Virus record (IMG/VR): IMGVR_UViG_3300043313_001888
Location: 1-37,540 of that record
Length of the DNA: 37,540 nucleotides
Reading direction: 5' to 3' (one strand)
Source of the DNA: a virus
Of this stretch, positions 1 through 37,540 are shown piece after piece; the stretch's first letter is position 1; each line of letters opens with the position of its first letter. Under the pieces are notes generated by a model. The model saw only the letters and a program-made list of their open reading frames with translations. It did not search any database and was not told the DNA's origin. The position numbers and the translations under genes were made by a program.

Positions 1-69
1 CCCACGACCGCTGCGCGCACGACCACCGCCACCTTGAGCACTGGCGCCGGGATCGACCGACCGGTCTCG
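1..69. repeat. Terminal direct repeat, left copy (circular overlap)
   Basis: These 69 bases are identical to the last 69 bases of the window. The same reading frame crosses both copies without a stop, so the repeat is best read as the overlap of a circular assembly or a circularly permuted phage genome. It lies inside a coding sequence, which argues against a physical packaging end. Confidence 0.95.
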
Positions 70-1554
70 GGCAACCTGCCCGTCACGGCCGCTCTGGTGG
101 CGGATGCGTCCGTCTCGCGGGGGGTGAGCGGATCGCTCCCTGTCACCGCCGGGCTCGCTACGGTGGGACTGGCCAGCGACGCGGCGCTAGCGAGTCGCTC
201 CATCGCTGTGTCGCTGGCCACCTCTGCGGACATGGTGCGGGTGGGCATCAGCAGCCTGGCGCTGACGGCCGATCGCGCGGCCGTCGGGGGAGTGGACCGG
301 CCGAGCGCCGCCAGCCTCCCGGTGACGGTCAGCAGCGTGGCCACGCCGCTCCTGGAGCGCGGCCTGGTCGCGACCTACACCGGCACTGCGACGCTGCTCG
401 GGACACCGGCGATCGACCGACCGATCACCGCCACTCAGGCGGTGAGCGCCACCTTGAGCACCGCCGCCAGCGTGGACCGAGCAGCTGTGGCCAGCCTGCC
501 GGTGACCGCGTCGCGCAGCAGCACGGCCAACCGGGACACCAGCACCACCGCAGCGCTGAACCTGCTCGCTGACTTGGCCACGGCCAGCGGCGCCAGCAGC
601 CGCGACATCACCGCCACCCTCACCTCGACCGCCACCCTGCTCGCCGCCCAGGCGGTGGATCGTCCGGTCACTGGGACCCGAGCGGTGCTCGCATCCTTGG
701 CCACCTCGGCTGCGGTGGACCGGTCGGCGGCCGCGACCCTTGCAGCGACGGCAACTCCGGTCGCGGCCGCGAGCCGGAACGTCACTGCCACAACAGCGCT
801 GAACGTCACTGCCGATCTGCAGAGCGCGTCGGGCGCGTCGTCCAAGAGCATCGACGGGTTGCTGCCGGTCACCGCCTCCCGCGCGGCTGCCCTGGGTGTG
901 GACCGCCCGGTCACCGGGACCCTGCCGGTCACGGCCACGCTCGCCGCTGTCTGTGCTGTCGACCGAGCGGCTACCGCCGTGCGCTCGGTGACCGCGTCCC
1001 TGGTCACCGCCGGGCTGGCCGAGCGGGCGGTCTCCGGGTCCTTGGCCGTGACCGCCTCGCGCACCGCGGCGGCACAGAGCACCGGGGTTGCCTCGGCCAG
1101 CGCCAGCCTGCTGGTGATCGCCACCCCGATCGCGTTGGCCGGGATCGCCACCGACCACACCGCGACTCGCACCGTGACGGCCACGCTCTCCGCCTCGGCG
1201 GAGGTGCAGCGCGCCGGCGTGGCGAACCGCCCAGTGACCGCGTCGCTGAGCGCCTCGATGCAGTTGGTCGCCAACGCCACCGCGCACCTGCCGGTCACCG
1301 CGGCCCGCCCGGTGGTCACTCAGGTGCTGGACTGGTGGGAGGCCGACCTGCAGTTCGAGTTCGCCGCTGCGTTGCTGGCTTCGGCGGTGGTGCTGCGGGT
1401 GGATGCACCGTCCACGATCACCGTTCCCACCCACGACCGCGGCTTCGCCACGTCCGTGACTCGGGGCGAGCTGGTCACCACTGTGCGGACCGGCGCGAGC
1501 GTTACTGTAAACACGCGAGAGGCGATCACGACAGTCGCCGGGAGAGAGGTCTGA
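1..1554 (+). CDS. Giant chimeric virion surface protein, 3' part (continues from 37540)
   Basis: This is the 3' end of the gene starting at 34145. Positions 1-69 duplicate 37472-37540, so new sequence begins at 70. An apparent TTG start at 34 is not a real start. To about 1326 the protein is a tandem array of roughly 21 degenerate units of 19-24 residues, with consensus near DRPVTASLPVTATLAAAAxV. Two units are interrupted by a longer SASGASS-type variant. A non-repetitive tail of about 75 residues starts at DWWEADLQF and ends the protein. The array probably forms an extended beta-rich stalk. The stop TGA (1552-1554) is one base before the ATG of the adaptor gene, so the two are likely co-transcribed. 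Confidence 0.85.
   Translation, partial: PTTAARTTTATLSTGAGIDRPVSGNLPVTAALVADASVSRGVSGSLPVTAGLATVGLASDAALASRSIAVSLATSADMVRVGISSLALTADRAAVGGVDRPSAASLPVTVSSVATPLLERGLVATYTGTATLLGTPAIDRPITATQAVSATLSTAASVDRAAVASLPVTASRSSTANRDTSTTAALNLLADLATASGASSRDITATLTSTATLLAAQAVDRPVTGTRAVLASLATSAAVDRSAAATLAATATPVAAASRNVTATTALNVTADLQSASGASSKSIDGLLPVTASRAAALGVDRPVTGTLPVTATLAAVCAVDRAATAVRSVTASLVTAGLAERAVSGSLAVTASRTAAAQSTGVASASASLLVIATPIALAGIATDHTATRTVTATLSASAEVQRAGVANRPVTASLSASMQLVANATAHLPVTAARPVVTQVLDWWEADLQFEFAAALLASAVVLRVDAPSTITVPTHDRGFATSVTRGELVTTVRTGASVTVNTREAITTVAGREV
100..1326 (+). repeat. Protein-level tandem repeat array (19-24 residue units)
   Basis: About 20 consecutive units are recognisable by eye, each opening with D/S/E-R and containing LPVTA or a related V-T-A-T/S-L core. 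DNA identity between units is low, so the repetition is at protein level and old, not a recent slippage product. Further copies precede the circular joint (from about 37285), and single copies serve as linkers near 35935 and 36612. Confidence 0.8.
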
Positions 1555-1555
1555 G

Positions 1556-2320
1556 ATGGTCACCAGCTTCTACGTCGGGGAGCAGCCCTCGGACCCCCTG
1601 GTCGTCACCGTCAACGACGCCTCAGGCAACGCCCTGGATCTCTCGGACGTGTCCGTGGTCGAGTTCGTCGGCGACCCGCTGCCTGCCGGGGACGCGGCGA
1701 TCTCCAGCCCCACTCAGGGAAAAGTGCAGTACAGCTTTGAGGCACCGTTCACCGAAGCGGGCACGCTCACCCTGCAGGTGAAGATGACCGACGAGGTGGC
1801 TGGTGTGGACTACTCCGCACCGTTCACGATCACGGTGGCCGACCCCACCGAGGTGGCCGAGCTGCTGGTCACCCCCACCCAGGTCGAGGACTGGACCGGG
1901 CAGAGCGTCTCGACCAGCAACGTCGCCCGCGCACAGGCCGACGTCGGGTTGGCCTGCGCTCGTGACCTGGCTGAGGTCGGCTGGCTGGCTGAACTCTCCT
2001 CTGCGGACTACTACTGGTTGACGCTGGCGGTCGCCTACCAGGCCGCCGCGGTCGCTGCGCAGGACGAGGGGCTGGGTGCGCTCTATGTCCCCGGTGCCAG
2101 CTCGGTGGCCAACGGCGACATCCGGATCACCTACCGCGACACCTCGGCCGGCAGTGGTGGCACCGAGCCCTCGGGGGTGACCGGGCAGGCTGGGGTCGCG
2201 GTCTCGCGGCTCTCCTGGATGCGCCCGTTCCGCTCGATCCAGGCGCAGCCGTTCTCCCAGCGCGGGGAGCAGCCCGACTTGTGGCGGCCGATGAGCATCA
2301 GCGGCGGGTGGCCGCGATGA
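1556..2320 (+). CDS. Head-tail adaptor with N-terminal Ig/BppU-like domain
   Basis: 254 residues, ATG 1556 right after the preceding stop. Residues about 1-95 look like the small beta-sandwich found at the N-terminus of BppU-type baseplate proteins (pattern PLVVTVNDASGNALDLSDV, then GKVQYSF and TLTLQVK). Residues about 100-180 are helical (DVGLACARDLAEVGWL, YYWLTLAVAYQAAAVAAQ) as in head-completion adaptors that bind the portal. The C-terminal part is Gly/Ser-rich and ends in Pro/Trp-rich sequence. The position just before the head-closure gene fits the adaptor role. The N-terminal domain is an extra module compared with compact adaptors of about 100-150 residues. Function is inferred from gene order and helical pattern. 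Confidence 0.7.
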   Translation: MVTSFYVGEQPSDPLVVTVNDASGNALDLSDVSVVEFVGDPLPAGDAAISSPTQGKVQYSFEAPFTEAGTLTLQVKMTDEVAGVDYSAPFTITVADPTEVAELLVTPTQVEDWTGQSVSTSNVARAQADVGLACARDLAEVGWLAELSSADYYWLTLAVAYQAAAVAAQDEGLGALYVPGASSVANGDIRITYRDTSAGSGGTEPSGVTGQAGVAVSRLSWMRPFRSIQAQPFSQRGEQPDLWRPMSISGGWPR

Positions 2321-2676
2321 TCCCGGCGCCGACCACACTGGTAACGCTGCTGAAGCCGCGCGAGGGCGACTCCGACTCCGACGACTGGGGCACCGCACCG
2401 GACCCCGAGACGGGGTACGAGGCGGTCGCCACCGGGATCCGGGCGCACTTCTCCGGGTCCGGGTCGGGCTCGACGACCAGCTCCTCGGCGGACGCCTCGG
2501 GCGGCAGCGTGCTGCTGCGCTACCGGCTGCTGTGCGACCCGTGTGCGCTGGCCACCGACATGCGGGTGCGTGACGAGCGCACCGGTCTGGTCTACGACGT
2601 GGCGTGGGTGACCCCGAAGCCGGAGCCGCTGAGTCACCTGGTCGCCTCGGTCACGCGTTCCACCGGGACGTCATAG
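2317..2676 (+). CDS. Head closure (stopper) protein
   Basis: 119 residues. ATG 2317 overlaps the TGA of the adaptor gene (ATGA), a translationally coupled start. The small beta-rich protein opens MIPAPTTLVTLLKPREG and ends with a V-Y-D-V-A-W-V strand. Its length and position between adaptor and gp10-like protein match head-closure/stopper proteins that seal the portal after packaging. A Gly/Ser stretch around residues 46-60 may be the flexible stopper loop. Assigned from gene order and size; no diagnostic motif was found. Confidence 0.6.
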   Translation: MIPAPTTLVTLLKPREGDSDSDDWGTAPDPETGYEAVATGIRAHFSGSGSGSTTSSSADASGGSVLLRYRLLCDPCALATDMRVRDERTGLVYDVAWVTPKPEPLSHLVASVTRSTGTS

Positions 2677-2743: not shown

Positions 2744-3055
2744 ATGGGCCACTATTCGATCGACCGCGCAGCCGTTGCTGGGCTGGGCGCTCACCCTCCC
2801 ATCGACGCCGCGGTGCACGGCTGTGCCAGCGACATCTACGACGACTCTCAGGCGCTGGTTCCACAACCAGGCCAGGCCGATGACCCGTACGCCACCGGTG
2901 AGCTGAAGGCGTCTGGCTTCGTGGACGGCCGGGCTTCGGAGTACACCATCGGCTACGGGACCGATCACGCAGGCTTCGTCGAGTTCGGCACCCGGTACAT
3001 GGACGCCGAGCCGTTCTTGACCCCCGCCGCGGTGCGCCAGCGAGGTCGGCTGTGA
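2744..3055 (+). CDS. HK97 gp10-like neck protein
   Basis: 103 residues, ATG 2744 with an AGGAAG Shine-Dalgarno six bases upstream. The C-terminal pattern VEFGTRYMDAEPFLTPA is the hallmark of the HK97 gp10 family, small neck/tail-completion proteins at the head-tail joint. The N-terminal half contains alpha-helix and a substrate-like SQALVPQ...GELKAS motif also usual for the family. It follows a 67-base gap carrying the GTT-N3-GTAACCAC motif, so it may begin its own transcript. The stop overlaps the next GTG start. Confidence 0.85.
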   Translation: MGHYSIDRAAVAGLGAHPPIDAAVHGCASDIYDDSQALVPQPGQADDPYATGELKASGFVDGRASEYTIGYGTDHAGFVEFGTRYMDAEPFLTPAAVRQRGRL

Positions 3056-3450
3056 ACGCCTCCGACGTCGCCGAGATCGTGGTCCGCGATTACCTGCGCA
3101 CCTGTGATGCCGTGATGGCGCTGCTCAACGACGAGACCAAGCGGCTCAACCTGGACTTCAGCGGCAACATGGCTGCTACCCACGTGACGATCAACCTGGC
3201 CGGCGGCGGCCTGCACCCCTATCTGCCGATCGGCCAGCCCGCGCTGCAGATCCACTGCTTCGGCAGCACCCGTCCGGCGGCGGCCATTCTTGCCTCCGAG
3301 GTCGCCCGAGCACTACACGAGGTCTCCGAGGCACATGCCCCGTTGGCCTCGGCCGAGGTGCTCTCCATCAACTTCGCGCCCACCACCGACGGTGTGGCCC
3401 GATACGTGGTGACGACGTCCGTCGTGGCCAAGCTCAAGGCTTCGGCCTGA
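3052..3450 (+). CDS. Tail terminator protein
   Basis: 132 residues, GTG 3052 overlapping the TGA of the upstream gene. The alpha/beta pattern, with a first helix (VAEIVVRDYLRTCDAVMALL), LNLDF, LQIHCFGS and a final strand YVVTTSVVAKL, fits tail-terminator/joining proteins that cap the tail tube before head attachment. The order gp10-like, terminator, major tail protein is the standard siphovirus one. Name based on position, length and secondary-structure pattern. Confidence 0.65.
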   Translation: MNASDVAEIVVRDYLRTCDAVMALLNDETKRLNLDFSGNMAATHVTINLAGGGLHPYLPIGQPALQIHCFGSTRPAAAILASEVARALHEVSEAHAPLASAEVLSINFAPTTDGVARYVVTTSVVAKLKASA

Positions 3451-3468: not shown

Positions 3469-4083
3469 ATGGCGATCACAGATCCCACCAAGCCTGTGGT
3501 GGGCAACGGAGAACTCGTCCGGATCGGACCCGGAAAGCTGTGGGTCGCGCCCTTCGGCACGGCTCTTCCGACGACGCTGGCCGCAGCTCCGAACGCGGCC
3601 TTCCGTGAGGTGGGATTCACCACCGAGGGCAGCGTCGTGAACTACACCCAGGCCAGCGAGCAGGTCGAGGTGGCCGAGCGACTGCGCGGGATCAAGAGCA
3701 TCATCACCTCGGTCGAGATGACGTTTGAAGTCACCCTCGCCCAGCTCTCGCTGGAGAACATGGCGATGGCCATGAACGCTGGCGCCGAGTCGATCGTGGA
3801 GACCACCGCCGAGCGGATCTTCATCTGGCCCAAGTCCGGCGGCACCAACCGGGTCTCGCTGATCTGGCAGTCCGACGACAACCTGGAGCGCGAGGTGCTG
3901 GTCAAGTGCTTCGCCGGCGGCGACATCGCCATCCCTCGACGCAAGGGTGTCGAGCCCGCGGCGCTGAACGTGACGTTCACCATCGAGGAGAACGCCTCGG
4001 TCGAGGTGACTCTGGACGGCGAGGATCTGCTGCCCGACGCCTTCTACATCCAGGACATCGACCTGGGTGAGGTCGCAGCGTGA
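3469..4083 (+). CDS. Major tail (tube) protein
   Basis: 204 residues, ATG 3469 with a strong AGGAAAGGA Shine-Dalgarno. It carries the usual features of siphovirus tube proteins: an N-terminal G-x-L-W-V-A-P strand with FREVGFTTEG, a central long-helix segment (LAQLSLENMAMAMNAGA), then beta strands with FTIEENASVEVTL. It directly precedes the two overlapping chaperone frames and the tape measure gene, which is the diagnostic arrangement. Expected to be one of the two most abundant virion proteins. Confidence 0.9.
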   Translation: MAITDPTKPVVGNGELVRIGPGKLWVAPFGTALPTTLAAAPNAAFREVGFTTEGSVVNYTQASEQVEVAERLRGIKSIITSVEMTFEVTLAQLSLENMAMAMNAGAESIVETTAERIFIWPKSGGTNRVSLIWQSDDNLEREVLVKCFAGGDIAIPRRKGVEPAALNVTFTIEENASVEVTLDGEDLLPDAFYIQDIDLGEVAA

Positions 4084-4779: not shown

Positions 4780-7700
4780 GTGCGTATCGCTGACCTCTAC
4801 GTCGACCTTCACCTGGACACGGGATCGTTCACTCGTGACCTGAACGCCACCCTGGCCAAGGCGTCGCGCCGCGACATCGACGTCAAGGTCAGAGCCGACA
4901 CCCGCACCGCGAGTCGCAACCTGCAGACGCTGACCAAGAACGTCAACAACGCCAGCTCCGGGATCAACACCCTGACCGGGCGGATCTCGCTGATGGCCTC
5001 GGCAGCAGCAGCGGTTGGCCCCACCATCGTCCCGATGGCCGCCGCCCTGACCAACGCCGCCGGCGCGCTGACCTCAGCGCTGGTCGCAGGTGGTGGCGCT
5101 GGTGGCATCTTCGGCGCGTCGGTGGCTGGTCAGGCGGCCCGGATGAAGGAGGCCCGCCAGCAGATCGAGTCGACGCGGAAGTCGATGGACAACTACGCCA
5201 AAGGCACCAAGGAGCACGCCGAGAAGCAGAAGCAGCTGAACGTGCTGCAGAAGGACTTCAACAAGACCTTCGGCCCAGCAGCCAAGGGGTTCAACCAGCT
5301 CTCACGCGGCTGGGACAAGTTCCTCTCCGGTACCCAGAGCGTGACGCTCGGGGTGATGGGCGACGCAATGGGGTCGCTGGCCGGCATCCTGCCCAGGTTG
5401 GTGCCGGTGGCCAACGCTGCTGGCGGTGCGGTGCGCGGGCTGATCAGTGAGTTCGACGCGTTCACCGGCACCAAGGATTTCCAGGACATCCTCGACTTCT
5501 TCGAGACCCAAGGCCCCAAGGCGATCACCAGCTTCGGGCACATCGCAGGCAACGTGTTCGAGGGCATCTTCGGGATCCTGCAGGCGTTCGCACCCCAGCA
5601 GGACAAGGTGCTCGGCGGTGTCGAGGGAATGAGCAAGGCGTTCGCTGACTGGGGCAAGAACCTCAAGGACAACCCTGCCTTCCAGGACTTCGTGGACTAC
5701 GCGAACAAGAACGGTCCCGAGGTGCTCAACCTGGTCAAGCAGATCGCCGAGACCGGTGTCGAACTGGTCCAGGCGTACGCCCCGATCGGGCAGGCAACAC
5801 TGCCGGTGCTGTCCGCGTTCGCCGACATCATCGGGAAGATCGCCAAGATCCCGTTCGCCGGTGAACTCATCGCCGCAGCCGGTGCGTTCCGGTTGATGTC
5901 GGGACCGATCGGTGGTCTTCAGCGAGGAGTGGCGGGACTGAGCGAGGCGTTCCTGGACCTGCGTACCAGCCCCAACAAGGCGAAGACCGCGATGGAGCGG
6001 TTCGGCGGAGCAGCACGCGCTGCTGCTGGGGTCGGCGGGATCATGGCATTGACGGACGGAATGTCCCGTGCCGAGGGCAAGCTCAGCACCTTCGAGACCA
6101 CGCTTGGCGGTGCATTGCTTGGCTTCTCGGTGGGCGGTCCGTGGGGTGCCGCCATCGGTGGAATCGCGGGGTTCTTCTCGACTGCGTTCAAGGAGACCGA
6201 GAAGGCGAACAGCGCAGCCCAGGACTACATGGCCACGCTGGATGAGTTGTCGGGGAAGGTCACTGAGGCCACCCGCAAGGCAGCCACCAAGGCGGTGACC
6301 GGGCAGACAGGTGTCGAAGAGGGCGGCACCATGAATGCCGCCGGCGCCGGGATCTCGACCCGTGAGCAGGTCAACGCGATCACCGGTGGAATCAAGCAGT
6401 GGGGCAAGCTCAAGGCCGATGTCACGGCTGCGATCAAGCAGGGTCTGATCAGGCCCGAAGACGGCGACAAGCTGCTCGATTTCTTGGGCGAGCAGCGTGA
6501 GAAGGCACAAGGTGCTGTCGGCGCCTGGAAGGACTTGGATGCGACCACCCGCACGTTCTCCGGCAACATCAACAAGCTGCCCAAGAACGTGCAGATGAAG
6601 CTGGAGACTGACGGGCTCGAACGGTCGAACAAGGGCATCGCCGAGCTGGTGGCCCAGTTCCCGAAGCTCGATCGCAAGGACATCCGGCTGCTGATCCGGG
6701 AGAACGGTGGCAAGCCGACCAAGAAGATGGTGGACAGCATCCTGGCGCAGGCCGACCGGATCAAGCAGCACAAGGCAGAGATGAGGATCACTGCCAAGAA
6801 CGCCACCAAGCCTGACATCGGGGCGGCGCTGAACGACATCGGCAAGATCAAGACGAAGAAGAAGAACGTCGGTACGCTCACCGCAGCTAACAGGACCGGC
6901 ATCGGGATCAAGGCCGCCACCGGGATGATCACCGGAGCCAGGACCGTCACCAAGACGCTTGGGACTTTGGTGGCGAAGAACTCCGTCGGGATCGCGATCA
7001 AGGCCGGAAGTGCTGCGATCAGAGGCGCCAAGCTGGTCACCAAGACGATCGGCAAGCTCACCGCCGAGAATGCCGTGTCAGCGGGCATCAGTGCTGCGCA
7101 GTCCGCGATCCGGGCGATCGTGCCGATCACGCACGTGGTCGGCAACCTGGTCACCCGTGCCCTCGGCGGCGGCTACGGCGGCGGTCTGCTGGGGCGCGAC
7201 TTCGACCGCGGTGGCTACACCGGCGACGGTGGCAAGTACCAGCCCGCGGGCATCGTGCACCGCGGTGAGTTCGTGATGGACAAGGCGCACACCCAGCGCT
7301 ACCTGCCGCTGCTGGAAGCGATGCATGCCGGCGAGGAGATCATGGGGTACCGCCGCGGTGGGCGAGCTGGTGGTCGTCGGGGTAGGACCAGGCAGCCGTA
7401 CGGCGCTGCCACCATCCGTGACTACGCCAACGGCCTGGAGGCAGGCTTCAACGCCAGCACGGTGGCGAGCAACCTGGAGAAGATCATCAAGCACGACCTG
7501 TCCGGACGGGCCGAGCGTCTCCAGCTGCGCAAGCTCGACAAGCTGGGCGACAAGCTCGACGACGTGGTCGCCGCCAACAAGCGGGTCGCCAAGGCCACCG
7601 AAGCGCGGGACCTGCAGGTCTCGCGGCGTACCGACATGGCCTCGTCCATCTCCTCGGCGATCACCCCCGACATCAGTCAGTTCGGCCAGACCGCCGGCGG

Positions 7701-8382
7701 GATCGCGGCAGGGCTGCGCACTCAGCGCGTCAACGCCAGCGCACTGGTTACCGCATTGCGCAAGCTCAACACCGCGGGCTTCCCGCCGTTCCTGGTCTCC
7801 CAGGTCGCCGGACTCGGGCTGGTCGACGGTGTCTCGGCCGCCAACCAGCTGCTCGCACTGTCCTCGGGAGACCGTCGGCAGACGATCGCGGACTTCAACT
7901 TCCTGGACACCTACGCCCAGCAGCAGAGTGCCAGCCTGTCCAACGCCACCTTCAAGGCCAGTGTGGACGCGGCGAACGCCTACCTGAGGACGATGCAGGG
8001 ACAGCAGCGGCACTACAACGCGATCTTCGCCACCGCAGCTGACGCGTTCGCCACCCAGCTGGCGAGTGCTGTCGGGGTCAGTCTGACCACACGACGTCGT
8101 GGTGGCCGCGGTGGTAGGCGTCGTCGGCGCCGGCACGACTCCGGCGGCTGGCTGAGCCCAGGTGTGACGGAGGTCGAGAACTTCACCGGAAAGCCGGAGC
8201 CGGTGCTGACCGCTGGGCAGTGGAGCCAGATGGAACGGCTGATCTCCGCGGTCGAGTCCGGACGCAGCGTCGGCGGTGGCGCACCGTTGATCGGGCACGC
8301 CGTGATCCGCGAAACCGTGGATCTTGCAGCGTACGAACGCCAGCGTGCCTTCCGCGAACGCGCTACCAGGATTGGACACTGA
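4780..8382 (+). CDS. Tape measure protein
   Basis: 1200 residues, GTG 4780, 29 bases after the chaperone stop. It sets tail length and is expected to be ejected with DNA. N-terminal helical region with VKVRADTRTASRNLQTL; hydrophobic segments near residues 70-117 and 437-465; three 30-residue repeats at about 697-786; a Gly-rich region GGGYGGGLLGRDFDRGGYTG near 800. The second half carries a basic RRGGRGGRRRRRR stretch near 1104-1117 and a C-terminal LSPGVTEVENFTGKPEPVL motif common in actinophage tape measures. It follows the chaperones as expected. At about 0.15 nm per residue the tail would be near 180 nm. No lytic or peptidase domain was seen. Confidence 0.95.
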   Translation: MRIADLYVDLHLDTGSFTRDLNATLAKASRRDIDVKVRADTRTASRNLQTLTKNVNNASSGINTLTGRISLMASAAAAVGPTIVPMAAALTNAAGALTSALVAGGGAGGIFGASVAGQAARMKEARQQIESTRKSMDNYAKGTKEHAEKQKQLNVLQKDFNKTFGPAAKGFNQLSRGWDKFLSGTQSVTLGVMGDAMGSLAGILPRLVPVANAAGGAVRGLISEFDAFTGTKDFQDILDFFETQGPKAITSFGHIAGNVFEGIFGILQAFAPQQDKVLGGVEGMSKAFADWGKNLKDNPAFQDFVDYANKNGPEVLNLVKQIAETGVELVQAYAPIGQATLPVLSAFADIIGKIAKIPFAGELIAAAGAFRLMSGPIGGLQRGVAGLSEAFLDLRTSPNKAKTAMERFGGAARAAAGVGGIMALTDGMSRAEGKLSTFETTLGGALLGFSVGGPWGAAIGGIAGFFSTAFKETEKANSAAQDYMATLDELSGKVTEATRKAATKAVTGQTGVEEGGTMNAAGAGISTREQVNAITGGIKQWGKLKADVTAAIKQGLIRPEDGDKLLDFLGEQREKAQGAVGAWKDLDATTRTFSGNINKLPKNVQMKLETDGLERSNKGIAELVAQFPKLDRKDIRLLIRENGGKPTKKMVDSILAQADRIKQHKAEMRITAKNATKPDIGAALNDIGKIKTKKKNVGTLTAANRTGIGIKAATGMITGARTVTKTLGTLVAKNSVGIAIKAGSAAIRGAKLVTKTIGKLTAENAVSAGISAAQSAIRAIVPITHVVGNLVTRALGGGYGGGLLGRDFDRGGYTGDGGKYQPAGIVHRGEFVMDKAHTQRYLPLLEAMHAGEEIMGYRRGGRAGGRRGRTRQPYGAATIRDYANGLEAGFNASTVASNLEKIIKHDLSGRAERLQLRKLDKLGDKLDDVVAANKRVAKATEARDLQVSRRTDMASSISSAITPDISQFGQTAGGIAAGLRTQRVNASALVTALRKLNTAGFPPFLVSQVAGLGLVDGVSAANQLLALSSGDRRQTIADFNFLDTYAQQQSASLSNATFKASVDAANAYLRTMQGQQRHYNAIFATAADAFATQLASAVGVSLTTRRRGGRGGRRRRRRHDSGGWLSPGVTEVENFTGKPEPVLTAGQWSQMERLISAVESGRSVGGGAPLIGHAVIRETVDLAAYERQRAFRERATRIGH
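6868..7137 (+). repeat. Three tandem 90-bp repeats in the tape measure gene
   Basis: Units start at 6868, 6958 and 7048. Each encodes 30 residues beginning V/L/I-G-T/K-L and the first two end in V-T-K-T. A fourth partial unit starts at 7138 (VGNLV). The exact 90-base spacing keeps frame, so repeat number could change tail length. Confidence 0.85.
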
Positions 8383-28412: not shown

Positions 28413-28941
28413 CCTTGTGCCAGGTGCTCAGCCGGGTGCCGTTCGGGGTGCGGCACGCCATGTCACCCATCGCGTCACACTGCGGGCACACCGCGTTCGT
28501 AGTCTGACGATCAGAGCGCCATTCCTTGTTGGCCTGTGCCTGGATGGCTTTGGCCTGCTCCCGTTCCCTCTGGCTCAGCCCGGTGCGCCAGGCGAACCGA
28601 GGGCGCACCCGCGCCGGCGGCTCCTCGGGTGGTGGTGGGCGTCTGGGCCGCACGGGTGGAGGTACTGGTGGTGAGGGTGGCTCCCATCGCTCGTCGGTGC
28701 CCTTGCTGCGCTCCTCGACCGCCCATCGGTAGCTGCCGTAGTGGGTCAGGTACCGGCGCACCTGCTGGTCGGTCATCTGGTGTTCGATGCCGACCTCGGC
28801 GAGGGTCATCCCCGAGACCCACGCCTCGGCGAGCTTGAGCGCCTTGGCCTGCTGCTCGCTGGTGATCTTCCGCAGCACGGGCAGGCGGATGCGTGGATCC
28901 CGCTCGGACTCGGCCAGGTAGTCGGGCGCCACCTTGTCCAT
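28387..28941 (-). CDS. HTH plus zinc-ribbon DNA-binding protein, antisense in the packaging cluster
   Basis: 184 residues from ATG 28941; the start is uncertain because there is no clear Shine-Dalgarno and an in-frame GTG lies 23 codons upstream. N-terminal HTH: TSEQQAKALKLAEAWVSGMTLAEVGIEHQMTDQQVRRYLTHYG at about 27-69. A proline-rich linker follows, then a C-terminal zinc-ribbon with CPQCD...C-R-T-P-N-G...W-H, the phage zinc-finger type seen in many actinophage proteins. Encoded opposite to its neighbours, between terminase and portal, and its upstream gap carries two copies of the 14-nt motif, so it may bind there. The minus frame remains open far into the portal gene, but that part is a GC-rich shadow. 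Confidence 0.75.
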   Translation of the reverse strand: MDKVAPDYLAESERDPRIRLPVLRKITSEQQAKALKLAEAWVSGMTLAEVGIEHQMTDQQVRRYLTHYGSYRWAVEERSKGTDERWEPPSPPVPPPVRPRRPPPPEEPPARVRPRFAWRTGLSQREREQAKAIQAQANKEWRSDRQTTNAVCPQCDAMGDMACRTPNGTRLSTWHKVRRQLGAT

Positions 28942-28986
28942 CTTGCGCGACGGTGGCGTTCGTGTCTTCTCCAGCGTGGGACATTT

Positions 28987-29000
28987 TGTTGGGTAACCAC
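28987..29000 (+). promoter_or_regulatory. Copy of the 14-nt motif (spacer variant)
   Basis: TTGTTGGGTAACCAC region: GTT and GTAACCAC are present with a 2-base spacer in place of 3. It lies in the gap between the antisense HTH gene and the portal gene. Confidence 0.5.
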
Positions 29001-29023
29001 ACGACCCCACACCGGCCGATCGA

Positions 29024-29037
29024 GTTACTGTAACCAC
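29024..29037 (+). promoter_or_regulatory. Copy of the 14-nt motif with divergent -10 boxes at the portal start
   Basis: GTTACTGTAACCAC ends one base before GTG 29038. The palindromic core GTTACTGTAAC holds TACTGT on the plus strand (29026-29031) and TACAGT on the minus strand (29027-29032), so it can be a divergent pair of -10 elements. The plus one is 6 bases from the start codon, implying a leaderless portal mRNA. Confidence 0.6.
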
Positions 29038-30450
29038 GTGCCGCTGCCCACCTACCTGACCCAGGCGATCGACGTCTTGGACAACGCCGCGGTCGGCTAC
29101 GACCAGGCCGAGGCGTACTACGAGGGCAACGTCGGCGAGGTGATCACCAGCCGGCGGCTGCGTCAGGTGTTCGGCCTCGGCTCCTCGGGACTCGACCGGT
29201 TCCGGATCAACTACGCCCGCACCCCGGTCGATGCGCTGCTGGAGCGGACCCAGATCCAGGGCATCACCTGTTCGGACGCCGGCGCGCTGAAGATCCTCGA
29301 CACGGTGTGGAAGAGCAACGAGCTGGGCCTCGAAGCCAAGGACATCCACCGGATGGTCTACGAGTTCGGCGACGCCTACCTGATCGGGTGGCAGTCCGAT
29401 GAGGTCGAGGGCGGTGTCGAGCTGTACGCGCACTCGCCCCAGAACGTGCGGATCTTCTACGACCCGGCTCGACCACGGCGCAAGCAGTACGGCGTGCACC
29501 GGTGGATCGAGCAGGGCAACCCCGACAACGAACTGGGCGAGGGTCTGTTCACCCGCGTGAACATCTACTGGCCCGACGGCGTCGAGCAGTGGCAGTCGCG
29601 GCACCGGATCGACGACGTGATGGGGGTGCCGGCGGCCACCACCCTGGTCAGTGACGAGCCCGACCTGGTCCCCTACGGCCCGGCCCCACTGCTGGAGAGC
29701 CCGACCCCCGGCATCATCCCGATCTTCCACTTCAGGAACGCCAGGCCCTTCGGTCGTCCCGAGCATGCGGATGCCTACGGGCCGCAAGACGCTATCACAA
29801 AGTTGCTGGTGACCATGATGGTGAGCGTGGATTTCGCTGGCTATCCGCAAAGATATGTTACTACAGACTCTGCACTGGCACCCGGCCCGCAGGCCGACGC
29901 GTTCGGTCCGCCACCTGACGACAGCATCAGCCTCGATGAGGGGCTGGACGGACTCGCCGGTGACTCCGAGATGGAGGCAGGCCCCGGTTCCACCTGGCTG
30001 CTCTCGGGCGCCAACGTGAAGGTCGGCCAGTTCGCCACCGCGCAGACCGACAACTTCCTGGCCGCGATCCACAGCTTGATCAAGCAGATGGCCAGCGTCA
30101 CCGACATCCCGGCTCACTACTTCGACCGGGCCGGCCAGATGCCGTCGGGCGAGGCGTTCCGTCGGGCCGAGGCGCCGCTGAACAGCAAGGTCGAGGACCG
30201 CGAGGCGCTGCTCGGGATCACCTGGGCCGAGACCTTCAACTGGATCCTGGACGCGAACAACACCTTCGCCGCGGACCCGATGCCGATCTGGGCGCCGACC
30301 CAGGTGTGGAACGACAAGGACTCCTGGAGCACCGCGAAGCTGGAGCTGGAGGCTGGCGTGCCGGCTGACCAGGTCTACCGCGAGCGCGGGATCTCCGAGG
30401 AGCTGATCGCCGAGTGGACCGCTAACCAGCCCGATCCGGCGTTAGAGTGA
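29038..30450 (+). CDS. Portal protein (SPP1 gp6-like)
   Basis: 470 residues, GTG 29038, leaderless start as described for the site at 29024. Typical portal elements: helical N-terminus, YGVHRWIEQ, LFTRVNIYWPDGVEQW, PIFHFRNARPFGRPEH, a central GYPQRYVTT motif near 275-283, the long stem helices (TAQTDNFLAAIHSLIKQMASVTDIPAHYFD) and the EAFRRAEAPLNSKVEDRE clip/wing segment. It forms the dodecameric DNA channel at one capsid vertex. A run of rare A/T-rich codons lies at about 29790-29880. The TGA sits within TTAGAGTGA. Confidence 0.9.
   Translation: MPLPTYLTQAIDVLDNAAVGYDQAEAYYEGNVGEVITSRRLRQVFGLGSSGLDRFRINYARTPVDALLERTQIQGITCSDAGALKILDTVWKSNELGLEAKDIHRMVYEFGDAYLIGWQSDEVEGGVELYAHSPQNVRIFYDPARPRRKQYGVHRWIEQGNPDNELGEGLFTRVNIYWPDGVEQWQSRHRIDDVMGVPAATTLVSDEPDLVPYGPAPLLESPTPGIIPIFHFRNARPFGRPEHADAYGPQDAITKLLVTMMVSVDFAGYPQRYVTTDSALAPGPQADAFGPPPDDSISLDEGLDGLAGDSEMEAGPGSTWLLSGANVKVGQFATAQTDNFLAAIHSLIKQMASVTDIPAHYFDRAGQMPSGEAFRRAEAPLNSKVEDREALLGITWAETFNWILDANNTFAADPMPIWAPTQVWNDKDSWSTAKLELEAGVPADQVYRERGISEELIAEWTANQPDPALE
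30443..30448 (+). promoter_or_regulatory. -10 box before scaffold gene
   Basis: TAGAGT overlapping the portal stop, third copy of the same hexamer in a promoter-like place. The 14-nt motif starts 12 bases further on (30455). A -35 is not clear. Confidence 0.4.
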
Positions 30451-31165: not shown

Positions 31166-32059
31166 ATGGCTGCTGTGGACATCAACCGAGGCACTACGGG
31201 CGTTCTGCTCCCTCCCTCGGTCAGCAACGAGATCTGGGGCTCGGTGGTCGAGCAGTCCGCCGTGATGCAGGTCTCCCGCCAGATCAGCCTGCCCGGCAAC
31301 GGCGTCACCATCCCGATGGTGACCGGCGAGGCAGTGGCCAACTGGGTGAACGAGAGCGAGGAGAAGCCGATCAGTCGGCCCACGGTCTCGAACAAGGCGA
31401 TGACCGCCTACAAGATCGCCGTGATCGTGCCGTTCTCGAACGAGTTCAAGCGGGATCTGGGCACCCTCTACGCCGAGCTGGTCCGTCGTCTCCCCGCCGC
31501 TCTCGCCAAGAAGTTCGACACCACTGTTTATGGAAACAGTGCTGCGCCGGGCTCCAACTTCGACACCCTGGCCGCGGTGCCGACGACCACCGTCGACAAC
31601 ACCAACACCTTCCAGGACCTGATCGCGGTCGTGAACATGCTCGGTGCGGCCGGCTACGACAACAGCGCCTGGCTCGCCAGCCCCGCGCTCTACGGTCTCC
31701 TGCTCAGCACCACGAACACGCTGGGCCAGCAGGTCTTCACCGCGGACGGCAGCCAGTCCAACGCGGTCGGCTCGGTGCTCGGCAGCCCGGTGGTCAAGAC
31801 CCGCACCTCGTTCCCCTCGGGAGCCGGTGCGACCAACGACATCCTCGGCATCGCCGGTGACTGGGCCGGTGCCTCGGTGTGGGGCTCGGTTGCGGGCGTG
31901 CAGGTGGCGCAGTCCGACCAGGCCACGCTGTTCGAGGGAGCGACGCCCATCTCGCTGTTCCAACGCAACATGTTCGCCGTGAGGTGCGAGATCGAGGTCG
32001 GCTTCCGGCTTCGTGACCCGAACGCGTTCGTGCGCCTCAACGACGGCACCGCGGACTGA
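31166..32059 (+). CDS. Major capsid protein (HK97 fold)
   Basis: 297 residues, ATG 31166 with CGGAGG upstream. HK97-family pattern: N-terminal LPPSVSNEIWGSVVEQSAVMQVSRQISLPGNGVTIPMVTGEAVANWVNE, spine helix LYAELVRRLPAALAKKFDTTVYG, and the A-domain region (FRLRDPNAFVRL). The expected most abundant virion protein. No N-terminal delta domain beyond a few residues, consistent with a separate scaffold. It contains an intragenic perfect inverted repeat at 31522-31541 with unusual codons. Confidence 0.9.
   Translation: MAAVDINRGTTGVLLPPSVSNEIWGSVVEQSAVMQVSRQISLPGNGVTIPMVTGEAVANWVNESEEKPISRPTVSNKAMTAYKIAVIVPFSNEFKRDLGTLYAELVRRLPAALAKKFDTTVYGNSAAPGSNFDTLAAVPTTTVDNTNTFQDLIAVVNMLGAAGYDNSAWLASPALYGLLLSTTNTLGQQVFTADGSQSNAVGSVLGSPVVKTRTSFPSGAGATNDILGIAGDWAGASVWGSVAGVQVAQSDQATLFEGATPISLFQRNMFAVRCEIEVGFRLRDPNAFVRLNDGTAD
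31522..31541. repeat. Perfect inverted repeat inside the capsid gene
   Basis: CACTGTTT-atgg-AAACAGTG, 8-bp arms and a 4-base loop, within a local stretch of A/T-ending codons in a GC-rich gene. Confidence 0.6.
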
Positions 32060-32064: not shown

Positions 32065-32370
32065 GTGGCTGACCAGGAGAGCAGGCAGAAGGACGAGGCC
32101 AAGGCTGCTGAGGAGCAGCAGAAGGCCGAGGCCGAAGCACTGGCCGCGGATCCCATCGGGGGCAAGCCCCAGATCGACATCGCTCAGGAGCGGTGGGCCG
32201 AGCACCTCGACGCGGAGCCTCCGGGCTACGTGGATCCCAAGGCTCAGGAGCAGCCGGAGGGTTACGCGCCTGACCCAAAAGACGTGGAGAACCCTCCCGT
32301 CAAGGAGCCCAAGCAGTCCAAGGAGTCGAAGAAGTCCAAGTCCGGAGTCACGCGCGACTCGACGTCGTAG
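32065..32370 (+). CDS. Charged small head-region protein
   Basis: 101 residues from GTG 32065. Highly charged and low-complexity: N-terminal acidic/Lys helix, central HLDAEPPGYVDPKAQEQPEGYAP and a Lys/Ser-rich C-terminus. No cysteine or membrane segment. Position after the major capsid gene suggests a minor head protein or assembly factor; function unknown. Its stop TAG lies 48 bases before the next usable start codon of a partly overlapping downstream frame. Confidence 0.65.
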   Translation: MADQESRQKDEAKAAEEQQKAEAEALAADPIGGKPQIDIAQERWAEHLDAEPPGYVDPKAQEQPEGYAPDPKDVENPPVKEPKQSKESKKSKSGVTRDSTS

Positions 32371-32555: not shown

Positions 32556-32858
32556 ATGCAGCTGACCCACCCGACCACCGGCGCCACCAAGACCCTGCCC
32601 GACGACGCCGACGTCACCGAGTACACCGACGCGGGCTGGCAGGTATCGAGCCCCCCTGCGGCGGACGAGGACTCGGCCGATGAGTCTGCGGACGATGCCG
32701 CCTCGGCGGCCGGCACCACAAGCTCGAAGGAAGCGGAGTCGGCGGAAGCGGCGAACACCACCGCACCGACGACCCAGGACGAGGTAGACGCCGGTCACGC
32801 CGGACTCCAGGTCGACGAGGGCGCCACCACGGCCGAGACGGGGACCGACCCGGCATGA
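32556..32858 (+). CDS. Small acidic head-region protein
   Basis: 100 residues, ATG 32556 with AGGAG upstream. Beta-rich start (MQLTHPTTGATKTLPDDADVTEYTDAGWQVSSPP) and a long acidic Ser/Thr/Ala/Glu tail. Probably a head accessory or decoration protein. It ends just before a hairpin and pentamer array. No family recognised. Confidence 0.65.
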   Translation: MQLTHPTTGATKTLPDDADVTEYTDAGWQVSSPPAADEDSADESADDAASAAGTTSSKEAESAEAANTTAPTTQDEVDAGHAGLQVDEGATTAETGTDPA

Positions 32859-33339: not shown

Positions 33340-33738
33340 ATGGCTGCAGGACTCGCCCCGACGGGGTACGCGCACAAGGTCTTGGACCACATGCACCGCG
33401 CCCAGGCCAGCACCGCGCCGGCGGGCAACTTCGTACAGCTGCACACCGCCGACCCTGGTGTCGCAGCCACGAACGCACCGTCGGCATTCGGGATCACCGG
33501 CCGCAAGACGCTGACCTTCAACGCCGCGGCGGCCGGGGCGGTTGCCTCGTCCAACGCACCGCAGTGGGCGACCTGGGCCAGCGGCACCGAGACGATCACG
33601 CACATCAGCGTGTGGGACGCGGCCTCGGGTGGCACGTTCCTGTACTCGATCGCGTTGGCCACCAGCAAGACGGTGACCAACGGTGACACGTTGAACTTGA
33701 CCTCGACGTCGGTCAGCTTGGCCCCCCTCGCTGCCTGA
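33340..33738 (+). CDS. Small beta-rich virion protein
   Basis: 132 residues from ATG 33340 with a strong AAGGAGGAATG Shine-Dalgarno. The pattern GNFVQLHTADPGVAATNAPSAFG, RKTLTFNAAAAGAVASSN, THISVWDAASGGTFLYSIAL and VTNGDTLNLTSTSVSL is typical of a family of small phage structural proteins often called tail-fibre or decoration proteins. Placed in the head cluster and before the giant surface protein, so capsid decoration is plausible. Confidence 0.7.
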   Translation: MAAGLAPTGYAHKVLDHMHRAQASTAPAGNFVQLHTADPGVAATNAPSAFGITGRKTLTFNAAAAGAVASSNAPQWATWASGTETITHISVWDAASGGTFLYSIALATSKTVTNGDTLNLTSTSVSLAPLAA

Positions 33739-33788: not shown

Positions 33789-33809
33789 CGGCACGAGGAG
33801 GAGGTGCGC

Positions 33810-34145
33810 ATGCCGATCTACGCCAGCAAGTTCGTCGGCGCGGGCACCGTCGCGGACCCCAAGCTCCCCGAGGCCGCGCTCGGCATGAAGACCTTCCGCA
33901 CCGCGGTGATCGGCAGCACCGCGATCAGCAACGTGCCGGTCCAGCAGCAGCTGCTGCCCGCACCCGACCCTGGTGGGCAGGCGGCCCCGAGCACGGTGGT
34001 GTACCTGGGCGAGACCCTGGACTCCCCGATGAGTGCGACCGCGGTCAAGGATCTGCGGACCAAGCACAACATCATCGCGACCGCGGGCGAGACTCCGCGG
34101 CAGATGGGTGCCCGGCTCGGCGTGCAGCTGGGGAGTGGTAACTGA
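33810..34145 (+). CDS. Unknown small protein upstream of giant surface protein
   Basis: 111 residues from ATG 33810, with a GAGGAGGAGG Shine-Dalgarno. A GTG at 33804 is an alternative. Begins MPIYASKFVGAGTVADPKLP and has VYLGETLDSPMSATAVKDLRTKHN and a C-terminal Gly/Arg-rich tail. Overlaps the ATG of the giant gene by one base, so it may be its partner, for example an attachment protein or chaperone. No family recognised. Confidence 0.65.
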   Translation: MPIYASKFVGAGTVADPKLPEAALGMKTFRTAVIGSTAISNVPVQQQLLPAPDPGGQAAPSTVVYLGETLDSPMSATAVKDLRTKHNIIATAGETPRQMGARLGVQLGSGN

Positions 34146-37100
34146 TGGTTGTCGCGTTCGTCAAGAGCCACACCCTCGTCACCGAGAAGGTGCTGGACAC
34201 CTCGATCGACCTCACCGTCGCCACCACCGTCCCGGCAGGCAACCTTATCGTCGCGGCGATCCTCTACGACAACGCAGCCACGGTCGGCAAGCCCACCATT
34301 GCGGCTGCGTCGAGCATCGCCAGGATGTCGGGCGAGACCAACAGCTGGGTGCTCCTCGGTCGCATCAACCACCCCTCGTCCACGTCGATCGGCGCGTTCG
34401 CCGGTGGTGAGCTGTGGGCGATCAAGACCACGGTCGCGTGGTCGGCGGCCAACTACGTGGCCACCCTGGACACCGCGGTCACCATGAAGGCCACCGTCTT
34501 GGCCGAGTTCTCCGGCGCGGAGGTCACCGCACGCAGCACCGCGGGTACCGCCTACTCCACCACCACGACAGCAGCCTCAGCAGCGACCACGGGCACCACT
34601 CCGGTGATCGGGGACCTGGCGCTCGGGTTCCTGTTCGGCTCGAACATTGCCGTTGCACCGGCGGGTGACACTGACACCACCGGTGGCTCCTGGTCCACTG
34701 CGATTGGTGTCGGCTCAACCGGCGGCTCCGCGGCAACCAACAACTTCGGCATCGTGCAGTACAAGGTGCTGACCGCCGCGTCGGCGCAGACCTACAACAG
34801 CTCGGCAGCGGGTGCAGCGGGCAACGGCGCGATCGTCACGGTGCTGCAGGCCACACCGACTGCCGCGATCACCCAGGCGAACGTGTATCCGTTCTACACC
34901 GAAGGCACCGAGACCGGCAGCACTGCCCTGGGCAATAGTCAGGCCATCGACCTCACCAGTGGCGACGCCAACATGGGCGTTCGGATACGCCTCCAGTCCA
35001 CTACCTCCGTCACCATCCCAGCCACTGACGACTGGCAGCTGCAGTGGGAGAAGAACGCCAGTGGCACCTGGACGGATGTCACCACCAGCAGCAGCACCGT
35101 GTCGGGGTACGCCTCTCCGAACCTGACTGACGGCGGCGCCACCACCAAACGGCTTTCCGGAGGTACCGGCACCTTCGAGGCAGGCAAGATCTCCGAGACC
35201 GGCCTGGTCTCCGACCTTGGCTGGGCTGGTCTCAATCACACCGAGGTGCTGTATGCGGTCACGATCAAGAAGGCCGACTTCACCAACTTCGACACGCTGC
35301 GGTTCCGGGTGCTTCGCAACGGTGTGACTACCACAATGACCTACAGCTTCCCTGCGGCCGCCACGATCTTCGGGGTCACACCGTTCCCGTCCATCACGAC
35401 TCTTCCGACGGACTTCACCAACTCCGCGTGGGTGGCGCACGACACGGCTCCCACGATCACAACCACCAGGATCAGCTGTCCACCAGCGGGTGCCTCCGGA
35501 GCAAGAACGGAGACGACCTGGTACGACTTCACCGGGAGGCGACTATCGGTCAGGATCGCCCAGTCCCCTACCGCGGGTACTGCGTATCTGAGCATGTACG
35601 TTCCCGGTGAAGGGACGTTGCCCGCCGGTCGGATCGGGCACAACAGCACTGCTGGCACGGTGATCTGGATTACTGCGATCACAGGCACGACCGGATCCAC
35701 CACCTGGGACCCGAGCAAGCCGTATCTGTCGATCCGGGAAGACAGCGGCACGCTCTACTACGAGCGGTCCGCGACCGGTGCGGCAGGAACCTGGGAACTC
35801 CTCGCCTCTCTAGCGAGCTACAGGCCCGTTACCGGCGTTCGAGTTGACGTGAATACCGTGTCCACCGCCAGCAGCACCCAGGCTGTCTGGTACGAGGAAG
35901 TCCTTGGCTCGTCGCCGTCTACGGGCACCACCCACTCGGCGTCCGCATCGCTGGCTGCGACCGCCACCCTCACCACAGCCGCTTCGGTCACTGCCGGCAC
36001 CCGCGCCAAGATCGACACCCTGTCCGACGACTTCTCCACCAAGGACACGACGAAGTGGACCTGGGGCGCCTCGGCCACCCAGGGCTCCGGACTGGTCAGC
36101 CTGCCGGCCAACGCGTTCGGGTTTGCTCAGTCGATCGAGTCCATCGACCGGTTCGATCTGACCAACAGCTCGATCACGATCCGGGTGCCGAGCATCCCCA
36201 CACGCAGCTCCGGCACCGGTCCCTCGCTGACGCTCTCACTGATCTCGACCGCCAACCAGGCAGCCGCCTCCGAGCAGTCCATCAACTTGCAGTCGAACAT
36301 GGCCGACCCGACCGTGGACGTCTATCCGATGATGGTCGTAGGCGGTACTCCTGACTACCCCGTCGCCACCTCCCGACTGCTGGCGACCTACCGCTGGTGG
36401 CGGATCGCACACAACGGCACCAACGTCGTGTTCACCGCCTCGGCCGACGGGGTCACCTACGACTCGATCTACAGCGTCGCCGCGTCCACGCTCACTGCTG
36501 CTGGGCACACGCTGTCCGACCTGCGGGTGGCAATCCGCTCGGTCGGTTCGGTCGGTGGCTCCACCGGTGCCTGGACCCTGGACTGGGTCAACGTTGCCGG
36601 GGTTACCCACTCGGCCACGGCCAGCCTGGCCGGCACGGCCACGCTGAGCACCACCGCTGCGGTCACCCGCAACGCCACCGCGTCTCTGGCGGTGACTGCC
36701 AGCCCCACTGCTGCAGCGACGGTGGTCACCCCGCACAACCTGTCTGCGCTGATTGAGGACTTCACGCTCACCAGCATCTGGGACGTGGATCCGCTGGCCA
36801 CCGCGACCACGACCAGCGCCACCATCCCGGCCACCAGCGCCCAGCCGACCGTGTCCACCGACACCAGCGACTGGTCCTTGGACGAGCAGCGGTTCTTCTG
36901 GCGCTGGAGCCCCCCGCCGGCGGTCTTGAGCGCCACCGCCAGCGCCGAGCTGCAGCCCGGTCCGAGCCCGTCCTCGACGAACATGCTGCGGTTCTTCTAC
37001 GACAACGGCACCCTGTTCATCCGGCACCACGTCGCCTCCACGGTGACCACGCTGGCCTCGTACACCTGGAACCCCGCCAGCCCGTACCTGGCGTTCCGCG

Positions 37101-37540
37101 ACACCGGCACCACCCAGTACTGGGAGACCTCGGCGGACGGCACGAACTGGACCACGGTTGGCTCCGCGGTCACCGGGCTGAGCATCGGTGGCGCGCAGGT
37201 CATCTTCCGCACCAACGCCTCGGGCACCTCCGGGTTCGGCAACCTGGTCATCGACAAGGTCAACACCGCGTTGCCGGCAGGCACCACCCACAGCGCTACC
37301 GCGGCCCTGGCCGTGACCGCTACCGGGTCCACCGTCGGAGCCCTGGACCTGTCCCGGCTGGCTGTCCTCGCCACCACGGCGACCACCAGCACCACCGCGG
37401 CGGTGAGCATCTCGCGGACTGCCACAGCGGTGTTCACCGCTGCCCTGACCACGACCGGTGCTACTGACCGGCCCACGACCGCTGCGCGCACGACCACCGC
37501 CACCTTGAGCACTGGCGCCGGGATCGACCGACCGGTCTCG
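34145..37540 (+). CDS. Giant chimeric virion surface protein, 5' part (continues at position 70)
   Basis: The start is ATG 34145, overlapping the TGA of the previous gene, with a GGGGAG Shine-Dalgarno upstream. The frame stays open to the window end and continues through the circular joint to 1554, giving about 1626 residues in all. Residues 1-233 resemble the two N-terminal modules of the tail protein at 8384. Three jelly-roll (concanavalin-like) modules follow at about 417-588, 625-822 and 871-1040. Each begins with a TDF/DDF/EDF motif, and modules 1 and 3 share a W(D/N)P-PYL--R pattern. Linkers between them carry a short Ala/Thr/Val repeat that expands into a long array after residue 1044. 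The composition is rich in Thr, Ala, Ser and Val and poor in Cys, as in secreted beta-structured fibres. It sits between small head genes and the head-tail adaptor, so it may be a head fibre or decoration, or an adsorption protein. Structural modules are seen; the exact location in the virion is inferred. Confidence 0.85.
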   Translation, partial: MVVAFVKSHTLVTEKVLDTSIDLTVATTVPAGNLIVAAILYDNAATVGKPTIAAASSIARMSGETNSWVLLGRINHPSSTSIGAFAGGELWAIKTTVAWSAANYVATLDTAVTMKATVLAEFSGAEVTARSTAGTAYSTTTTAASAATTGTTPVIGDLALGFLFGSNIAVAPAGDTDTTGGSWSTAIGVGSTGGSAATNNFGIVQYKVLTAASAQTYNSSAAGAAGNGAIVTVLQATPTAAITQANVYPFYTEGTETGSTALGNSQAIDLTSGDANMGVRIRLQSTTSVTIPATDDWQLQWEKNASGTWTDVTTSSSTVSGYASPNLTDGGATTKRLSGGTGTFEAGKISETGLVSDLGWAGLNHTEVLYAVTIKKADFTNFDTLRFRVLRNGVTTTMTYSFPAAATIFGVTPFPSITTLPTDFTNSAWVAHDTAPTITTTRISCPPAGASGARTETTWYDFTGRRLSVRIAQSPTAGTAYLSMYVPGEGTLPAGRIGHNSTAGTVIWITAITGTTGSTTWDPSKPYLSIREDSGTLYYERSATGAAGTWELLASLASYRPVTGVRVDVNTVSTASSTQAVWYEEVLGSSPSTGTTHSASASLAATATLTTAASVTAGTRAKIDTLSDDFSTKDTTKWTWGASATQGSGLVSLPANAFGFAQSIESIDRFDLTNSSITIRVPSIPTRSSGTGPSLTLSLISTANQAAASEQSINLQSNMADPTVDVYPMMVVGGTPDYPVATSRLLATYRWWRIAHNGTNVVFTASADGVTYDSIYSVAASTLTAAGHTLSDLRVAIRSVGSVGGSTGAWTLDWVNVAGVTHSATASLAGTATLSTTAAVTRNATASLAVTASPTAAATVVTPHNLSALIEDFTLTSIWDVDPLATATTTSATIPATSAQPTVSTDTSDWSLDEQRFFWRWSPPPAVLSATASAELQPGPSPSSTNMLRFFYDNGTLFIRHHVASTVTTLASYTWNPASPYLAFRDTGTTQYWETSADGTNWTTVGSAVTGLSIGGAQVIFRTNASGTSGFGNLVIDKVNTALPAGTTHSATAALAVTATGSTVGALDLSRLAVLATTATTSTTAAVSISRTATAVFTAALTTTGATDRPTTAARTTTATLSTGAGIDRPVS
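37472..37540. repeat. Terminal direct repeat, right copy (circular overlap)
   Basis: Exact copy of positions 1-69. Collapsing the two copies gives a closed molecule of about 37,471 bp. The joint lies within the degenerate-repeat part of a long surface-protein gene, so repeat copy number at the joint could have been miscounted by the assembler. Confidence 0.95.

What the first reader, a model, noticed from the sequence alone, without database searches (positions are those of the whole stretch)
34145..37540. 1626-residue modular lectin-like surface protein encoded between head and neck genes
Seen: one gene of about 4.9 kb with an N-terminal domain, three related jelly-roll modules and a long repeat array, placed after small head genes and before the head-tail adaptor. 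Known: tail fibres are normally encoded after the tape measure. A fibre of this size at the capsid-neck boundary suggests a head fibre, whisker or collar appendage that binds surface glycan. I know of no described equivalent with this layout.
Basis: partly seen in the sequence, partly recalled or inferred. Interest (0 to 1): 0.8.

Follow-up and report, generated by a model that had tools for sequence, protein, structure and literature searches.

The report
Bead-chain adhesin fibre at phage neck
A phage known only from sequence encodes, between its head and neck genes, a long string-like adhesin whose 20-residue repeats probably thread small bead proteins into a chain-like fibre for touching host sugars; this kind of fibre is known from one short-tailed phage but had not been recognised in this form and place.

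Summary
The window has an exact 69-bp terminal repeat; closing it gives one 1,626-aa gene (34145-37540 joined to 1-1554) with two N-terminal domains, three related lectin-like beta-modules and 25 tandem 20-residue repeats (28 in all), between small head genes and a neck-adaptor-like gene. The same period occurs beside PF23140 genes across IMG/VR (28 of 41 partner ORFs against 14 of 386 others). The protein is best read as adhesin payload fused to rope. Six other contigs carry the cassette 1.5-4 kb after the capsid gene, so the layout recurs. An Ig-like domain fused to the adaptor just downstream is a plausible anchor, but neck attachment is inferred: GP4's collar protein is absent here, and mycobacteriophages carry the collar-bead-rope trio after the tape measure. 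New variant of a known kind; 'no described equivalent' is too strong (GP4 fibre I, A-1(L) neck fibres, lactococcal NPS).

The parts
34145..37540 (+). 5' part of the 1,626-aa payload-rope gene (residues 1-1132)
   Evidence: open frame; circular join
1..1554 (+). 3' part of the same gene (residues 1110-1626; first 69 bases duplicate 37472-37540)
34145..34858 (+). N-terminal domain (res. 1-238), related protein in L005
34859..35374 (+). second domain (res. 239-410), present several times in the 3,014-aa L006 protein
35375..35920 (+). beta-module A (lectin-like)
36008..36610 (+). beta-module B (lectin-like)
   Evidence: 33% identical in L009
36740..37279 (+). beta-module C (lectin-like)
37292..37540 (+). 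start of terminal rope array (25 units of 20 residues, res. 1050-1551)
1..1326 (+). rest of terminal rope array
1327..1551 (+). C-terminal cap, with short HDR/TRE-type motifs resembling the ends of other ropes
   Evidence: by eye, sequences printed
33340..33738 (+). bead protein, PF23140 / phrog_240, homologue of GP4 gp80
   Evidence: E 3.5e-28; 8jou_a, 4.8e-8
33804..34145 (+). 113-aa protein of unknown family between bead and payload-rope
1556..2320 (+). 254-aa protein: Ig-like N-terminal half, head-tail adaptor-like C-terminal half; proposed anchor
   Evidence: (Invasin_D3 4.4e-5; phrog_22288 7.4e-7; phrog_541 adaptor 0.015)
31166..32059 (+). major capsid protein (phrog_10)
32065..32370 (+). 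small ORF of the head block
32556..32858 (+). small ORF of the head block
28741..30450 (+). portal ORF (phrog_104 from residue 108)
2281..2676 (+). 131-aa ORF in the head-closure position (no significant family match)
2744..3055 (+). neck protein Ne1 (phrog_5)
3052..3450 (+). tail terminator (phrog_123)
3469..4083 (+). tail tube protein (phrog_117, PF25681)
4780..8382 (+). tape measure protein
1..69 (.). terminal direct repeat (copy at 37472-37540)

Best explanation
The gene encodes the payload-plus-rope of a bead-chain fibre of the PF23140 (GP4 gp80) kind. Its N-terminal two-thirds (two domains and three lectin-like beta-modules) is the adhesin payload. Its C-terminal third is an extended rope of 20-residue units, on which the small PF23140 protein encoded two genes upstream assembles as beads, one unit per bead subunit (28 units, so about 14 dimers). 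The C-terminal end is held at the neck, most simply by the Ig-like domain carried on the head-tail adaptor-like protein encoded directly downstream, so flexible beaded fibres hang from the collar and let the payload sample host-surface glycans before the tail tip engages. Shown: gene anatomy, bead homology, shared period, cassette position and its recurrence. Inferred: bead-rope binding in this phage, the one-to-one count, polarity, neck anchoring, glycan binding.
For: Bead 33340-33738 matches PF23140 at 3.5e-28 and solved GP4 gp80 8jou_a at 4.8e-8, deposited as 10 chains. In Lessievirus podophages (beads 57-66% identical to GP4's) the gene after the bead is a period-20 protein with 10.2-10.4 units, matching 10 gp80 chains, and BcepIL02 gp57 matches 8jou_D at 2.9e-20. 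Period 20 recurs in 28 of 41 non-redundant ORFs just downstream of PF23140 genes against 14 of 386 other ORFs. The repeat profile of this protein also scores in the ropes of L059 (z 14.8) and L050 (z 5.9). Six contigs have a phrog_10-type capsid gene 1.5-4 kb upstream of the bead, as here at 1.3 kb; in L050 the order is capsid, small genes, bead, payload-rope, neck-region genes. L066 has an Ig-plus-adaptor protein (phrog_442, 1.8e-23) beside a bead, whereas homologous adaptors without the Ig half have no bead in the DNA held. The phiM5 bead homologue is in the virion proteome. LSH1 (PMC13243795) has an analogous three-gene module proposed to work as payload, 8JOU-like fibril and Ig-fold attachment.
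Against: No homologue of the GP4 collar protein (8jou_D) was found in the window. A 113-aa gene separates bead and rope. In mycobacteriophage clusters L and M the collar-bead-rope trio lies after the tape measure, so the module is not tied to the neck by gene position. 13 of 41 bead partners show no period 20. The Ig-adaptor association rests on one assessable positive case. The adaptor assignment of the 254-aa protein is weak by sequence. AlphaFold models were poor (pLDDT 40 and 54). Carbohydrate binding is untested, and the A-1(L) neck-fibre CBM did not bind its host (PMC10966104).
Confidence: 0.6

Rival explanations
1. The same bead-rope adhesin, but attached at the tail tip or along the tail like a conventional side fibre; its gene merely moved into the head block.
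For: In Gardann (cluster L) and prophiGD54-2 (cluster M) the collar homologue, bead and 528-761 aa rope-bearing 'minor tail protein' lie after the tape measure; in myophage PVJ1 the bead follows a baseplate gene. Gene position does not prove virion position.
Against: Here and in six other contigs the cassette is inside the head-neck block; here it runs directly into the adaptor-like gene (stop 1554, start 1556), and Lessievirus has it beside capsid genes. The phage has a separate LamG/fn3 adhesin after its tape measure (8384-11716).
Confidence: 0.22
2. A head-surface (capsid) fibre or decoration, as in phi29 gp8.5 or the 7-7-1 capsid fibres.
For: Close to the capsid gene; PF23140 is labelled 'head protein' in PHROGs and RefSeq.
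Against: The structurally known homologue, GP4 gp80, is part of a tail-vertex fibre, not a general capsid decoration; no capsid-binding domain recognised.
Confidence: 0.1
3. A non-virion or degenerate adhesin: the repeats are a low-complexity linker with no bead partner.
For: Alanine/threonine-rich composition; the LSH1 authors could not build a complex of their module.
Against: Strict 20-residue period over 25 units without stops, and its association with PF23140 genes across unrelated phages.
Confidence: 0.08

Closest known systems
Fibre I of Ralstonia podophage GP4 (gp80 dimers on a rope protein; PDB 8jou)
   Same: PF23140 bead; in its close relatives a 20-residue-period rope partner in the head gene block
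   Different: Siphophage; rope fused to a payload of about 1,050 residues; 28 rather than about 10 units; no GP4-type collar gene, an Ig-adaptor fusion instead. The GP4 fibre description is from my memory of Zheng et al. 2023 (J Mol Biol 168258, not held); only PDB sequences were tested.
LSH1 gp34-gp36 module (PMC13243795)
   Same: siphophage; payload with a poorly predictable tail, 8JOU-like fibril protein, Ig-fold attachment protein
   Different: located after the lysis genes; lyase-like payload; the repeat nature of the tail not recognised there
Mycobacteriophage cluster L/M module (Gardann gp22-gp24, prophiGD54-2 gp40-gp42)
   Same: collar homologue of GP4, bead about 50% identical to this one, period-20 array at the C terminus of a large protein
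   Different: after the tape measure, glycine-rich instead of lectin-like middle, annotated as minor tail, head or hypothetical proteins
Neck passage structure (NPS) of lactococcal 936/P335 phages (PMC6669499)
   Same: neck collar with beta-sandwich base, fibres and carbohydrate-binding ends, optional accessory
   Different: BppU base, coiled coil and CBM in one polypeptide; no beads or rope
Neck fibres of Anabaena myophage A-1(L) (PMC10966104)
   Same: bead-chain neck fibres with a distal CBM
   Different: beads join head to tail as trimers without a rope; no relation tested here

Membership tests
PF23140 bead-rope fibre | PF23140/gp80 bead gene in the cassette | tested here: met
   E 3.5e-28; 8jou_a 4.8e-8
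PF23140 bead-rope fibre | 20-residue-period rope protein close downstream of the bead | tested here: met
   one 113-aa gene lies between
PF23140 bead-rope fibre | beads physically bound to the rope | not testable with these tools
   needs co-expression or cryo-EM
GP4 fibre I in the strict sense | 8jou_D-type collar (fibre-tail adaptor) gene | tested here: not met
   profile search of window ORFs found none; the 254-aa protein has no 8jou match
Lactococcal NPS | BppU N-domain, coiled coil and CBM in one protein | tested here: not met
   no such Pfam domains in the 1,626-aa protein; a distant match could be missed
Mycobacteriophage minor tail protein, phrog_9784 type | sequence match to the family | tested here: not met
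   no PHROG match for the payload-rope protein; only a weak rope match to Gardann gp24
Lectin / ConA-like modules | ConA-like beta-sandwich fold | tested here: inconclusive
   low-confidence model, weak matches mostly of that class
Head-tail adaptor (254-aa protein) | match to an adaptor family | tested here: inconclusive
   phrog_541 E 0.015, phrog_22288 7.4e-7 (unknown function), position, two long helices in a low-confidence model

The most novel reading that the evidence does not exclude
Siphophages carry neck-anchored beaded lectin fibres in which one polypeptide is both adhesin and rope, with one 20-residue repeat setting the place of each bead subunit, so that fibre length is written in the repeat number, and the fibre is hooked to an Ig domain built into the head-tail adaptor.
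Probability: 0.4. Interest if true: 0.72.

Novelty: new variant of a known kind. Interest (0 to 1): 0.55.

Why it matters
If true, the chain-like fibre seen in one podophage is a widespread appendage (503 confirmed relatives in one capped IMG/VR scan) used by podo-, sipho- and probably myophages, now annotated as 'head protein', 'minor tail protein' or hypothetical. The repeat count would be a simple ruler for fibre length, and the module tells annotators where to look for host-binding payloads outside the usual tail-fibre locus. It also offers an explanation for the unpredictable tail sequence that the LSH1 authors noted as puzzling.

Tried and rejected
Sequence search of the 1,626-aa protein in annotated phages and the PDB: nothing useful. 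Tail-fibre gene misplaced by assembly: rejected, unique 69-bp repeat and unbroken repeat phase. Layout shared with the nearest capsid relatives: rejected, those inspected have a compact capsid-neck block without the cassette. GP4 rope chain in the PDB: not found with two Lessievirus ropes, so the rope is assigned by gene position, period and unit number only. Relatives of the 254-aa protein in phages and viral contigs: none found. Payload relatives in prokaryote genomes: two MAG hits only, so no host call. AlphaFold of the 254-aa protein: low confidence. Slicko01, a relative named in the LSH1 paper: only its first 50 kb fetched, no structural module there, not pursued.

Full report
What is there. 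The record ends in an exact 69-bp direct repeat (1-69 = 37472-37540), found nowhere else in the window; joining the ends gives a single 1,626-aa frame. The gene starts on the last base of the 113-aa ORF before it and its stop ends one base before the ATG of the 254-aa adaptor-like ORF, so the 113-aa protein, payload-rope and adaptor-like protein form one tight gene run, with the bead gene just upstream. From the protein's own sequence: two N-terminal domains (1-238, 239-410), three related beta-modules, one rope unit between modules A and B, two between B and C, then 25 units from 1050 to 1551 and a cap to 1626. The 20-residue phase passes through the join without a break, which supports the circular reading.

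Neighbourhood. Upstream are terminase, portal (phrog_104), scaffold (phrog_4708) and capsid protein (phrog_10); downstream are the 254-aa protein, a 131-aa ORF, Ne1 (phrog_5), tail terminator (phrog_123), tail tube (phrog_117) and tape measure. The 254-aa protein is Ig-like in its first 100 residues (Invasin_D3 4.4e-5, below that family's own cut-off) and adaptor-like after that (phrog_22288 7.4e-7, of unknown function; phrog_541 head-tail adaptor 0.015); a low-confidence model shows seven strands and then two long helices. Annotated relatives of the capsid protein go straight from capsid to adaptor, so the cassette is probably an addition.

The bead. The gene at 33340-33738 belongs to PF23140, 'Podophage GP4 fiber I protein gp80' (3.5e-28), and matches PDB 8jou_a (4.8e-8, 10 chains). 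I recall from the abstract of Zheng et al. 2023 (J Mol Biol 168258; not in the library) that GP4 fibre I is five gp80 dimers linked by an elongated rope protein at the edges of the tail vertex. [quoted passage not shown]

The rope. In BcepIL02 and JC1, whose beads are 57% and 63% identical to GP4's, the gene right after the bead is a period-20 protein with 10.4 and 10.2 units, close to the 10 gp80 chains of 8jou. The rope itself could not be found in the PDB by sequence, so this assignment rests on position, period and number. The same period is seen in this window, in Gardann gp24, prophiGD54-2 gp42, ctjtQ328 and C72C1, and in 28 of 41 non-redundant ORFs directly downstream of PF23140 genes in IMG/VR against 14 of 386 other ORFs of the same loci; several of those 14 lie one to three genes from the bead and may be ropes too. 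13 of 41 do not show it. The repeats of this protein match those of L059 and L050 in residue pattern as well as in period.

Position in other phages. With simple marker profiles, 35 of 89 bead loci have a podophage-type capsid gene upstream, 6 (L048, L050, L052, L066, L073, L087) a phrog_10-type capsid gene 1.5-4 kb upstream as here, 5 a tape measure upstream, and 43 gave no call. Capsid assignments of L050, L066 and L087 were confirmed with PHROGs. L087 also carries a lyase-like protein, a 741-aa payload-rope and a 122-aa protein that looks BppU-like by eye. L005, the closest relative of the payload (54%), also appears to have it a few genes after the capsid gene (the L005 head genes were read by eye, not tested). 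So the layout recurs among uncultured phages.

Anchor. L066 has an Ig-plus-adaptor protein assigned along its length to phrog_442 head-tail adaptor (1.8e-23) next to its bead cassette. Among loci with homologous adaptors, those without the Ig half show no bead in the DNA held; L130 is L066 again, and L131 (Ig present) ends too soon to judge. This is suggestive but rests on one positive case. The GP4 collar (8jou_D) has homologues in BcepIL02 (2.9e-20), Gardann and prophiGD54-2 (4e-13 and 9e-15), but none in the window. Mycobacteriophages of clusters L and M thus hold the complete collar-bead-rope trio, after the tape measure, which shows that gene position alone does not fix where the fibre sits.

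Function. The payload modules look lectin-like, but the model is weak and no binding was tested. A neck fibre with a CBM need not bind the host: in A-1(L) it did not. In lactococcal phages the neck CBM bound host cells weakly, and the TP901-1 collar is non-essential for infection. I therefore expect an accessory adsorption role; the protein after the tape measure at 8384-11716 (LamG, fn3) is the likelier main host-recognition protein (inference).

Verdict. Observation confirmed; interpretation partly supported; new variant of a known kind.

Noticed in passing
L039 6641-9673 (Gardann gp22-gp24); L040 8636-10980 (prophiGD54-2): Mycobacteriophage clusters L and M encode homologues of all three GP4 fibre parts (8jou_D-like collar, PF23140 bead, period-20 rope at the end of a large protein) after the tape measure; they are annotated as minor tail, head or hypothetical proteins.
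   Followed up: partly
window 18124-18669, - strand: Strong match to Lipoprotein_Ltp (PF07553, 3.5e-35), a family that I recall for superinfection-exclusion lipoproteins of phages of Gram-positive bacteria.
   Followed up: no
window 21159-22208: Prim-Pol (PF09250) bifunctional primase/polymerase N-terminal domain, 3e-7.
   Followed up: no
window 8384-11716: Second large adhesin after the tape measure: two copies of an N-terminal domain, fn3 domains, a LamG match and a C-terminal stretch that was aligned with modules A-C of the finding.
   Followed up: partly
L006 7461-16505: 3,014-aa protein with several copies of the second domain of this payload, downstream of tail-like genes, followed by a 104-aa protein that looks Ig/BppU-like by eye.
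   Followed up: partly
L050 10581-11609: 342-aa protein in the adaptor position with an extra middle region (weak K1-lyase Rider match), recalling the lectin-type insertion reported in the DEV adaptor gp83 (PMC10925440).
   Followed up: no
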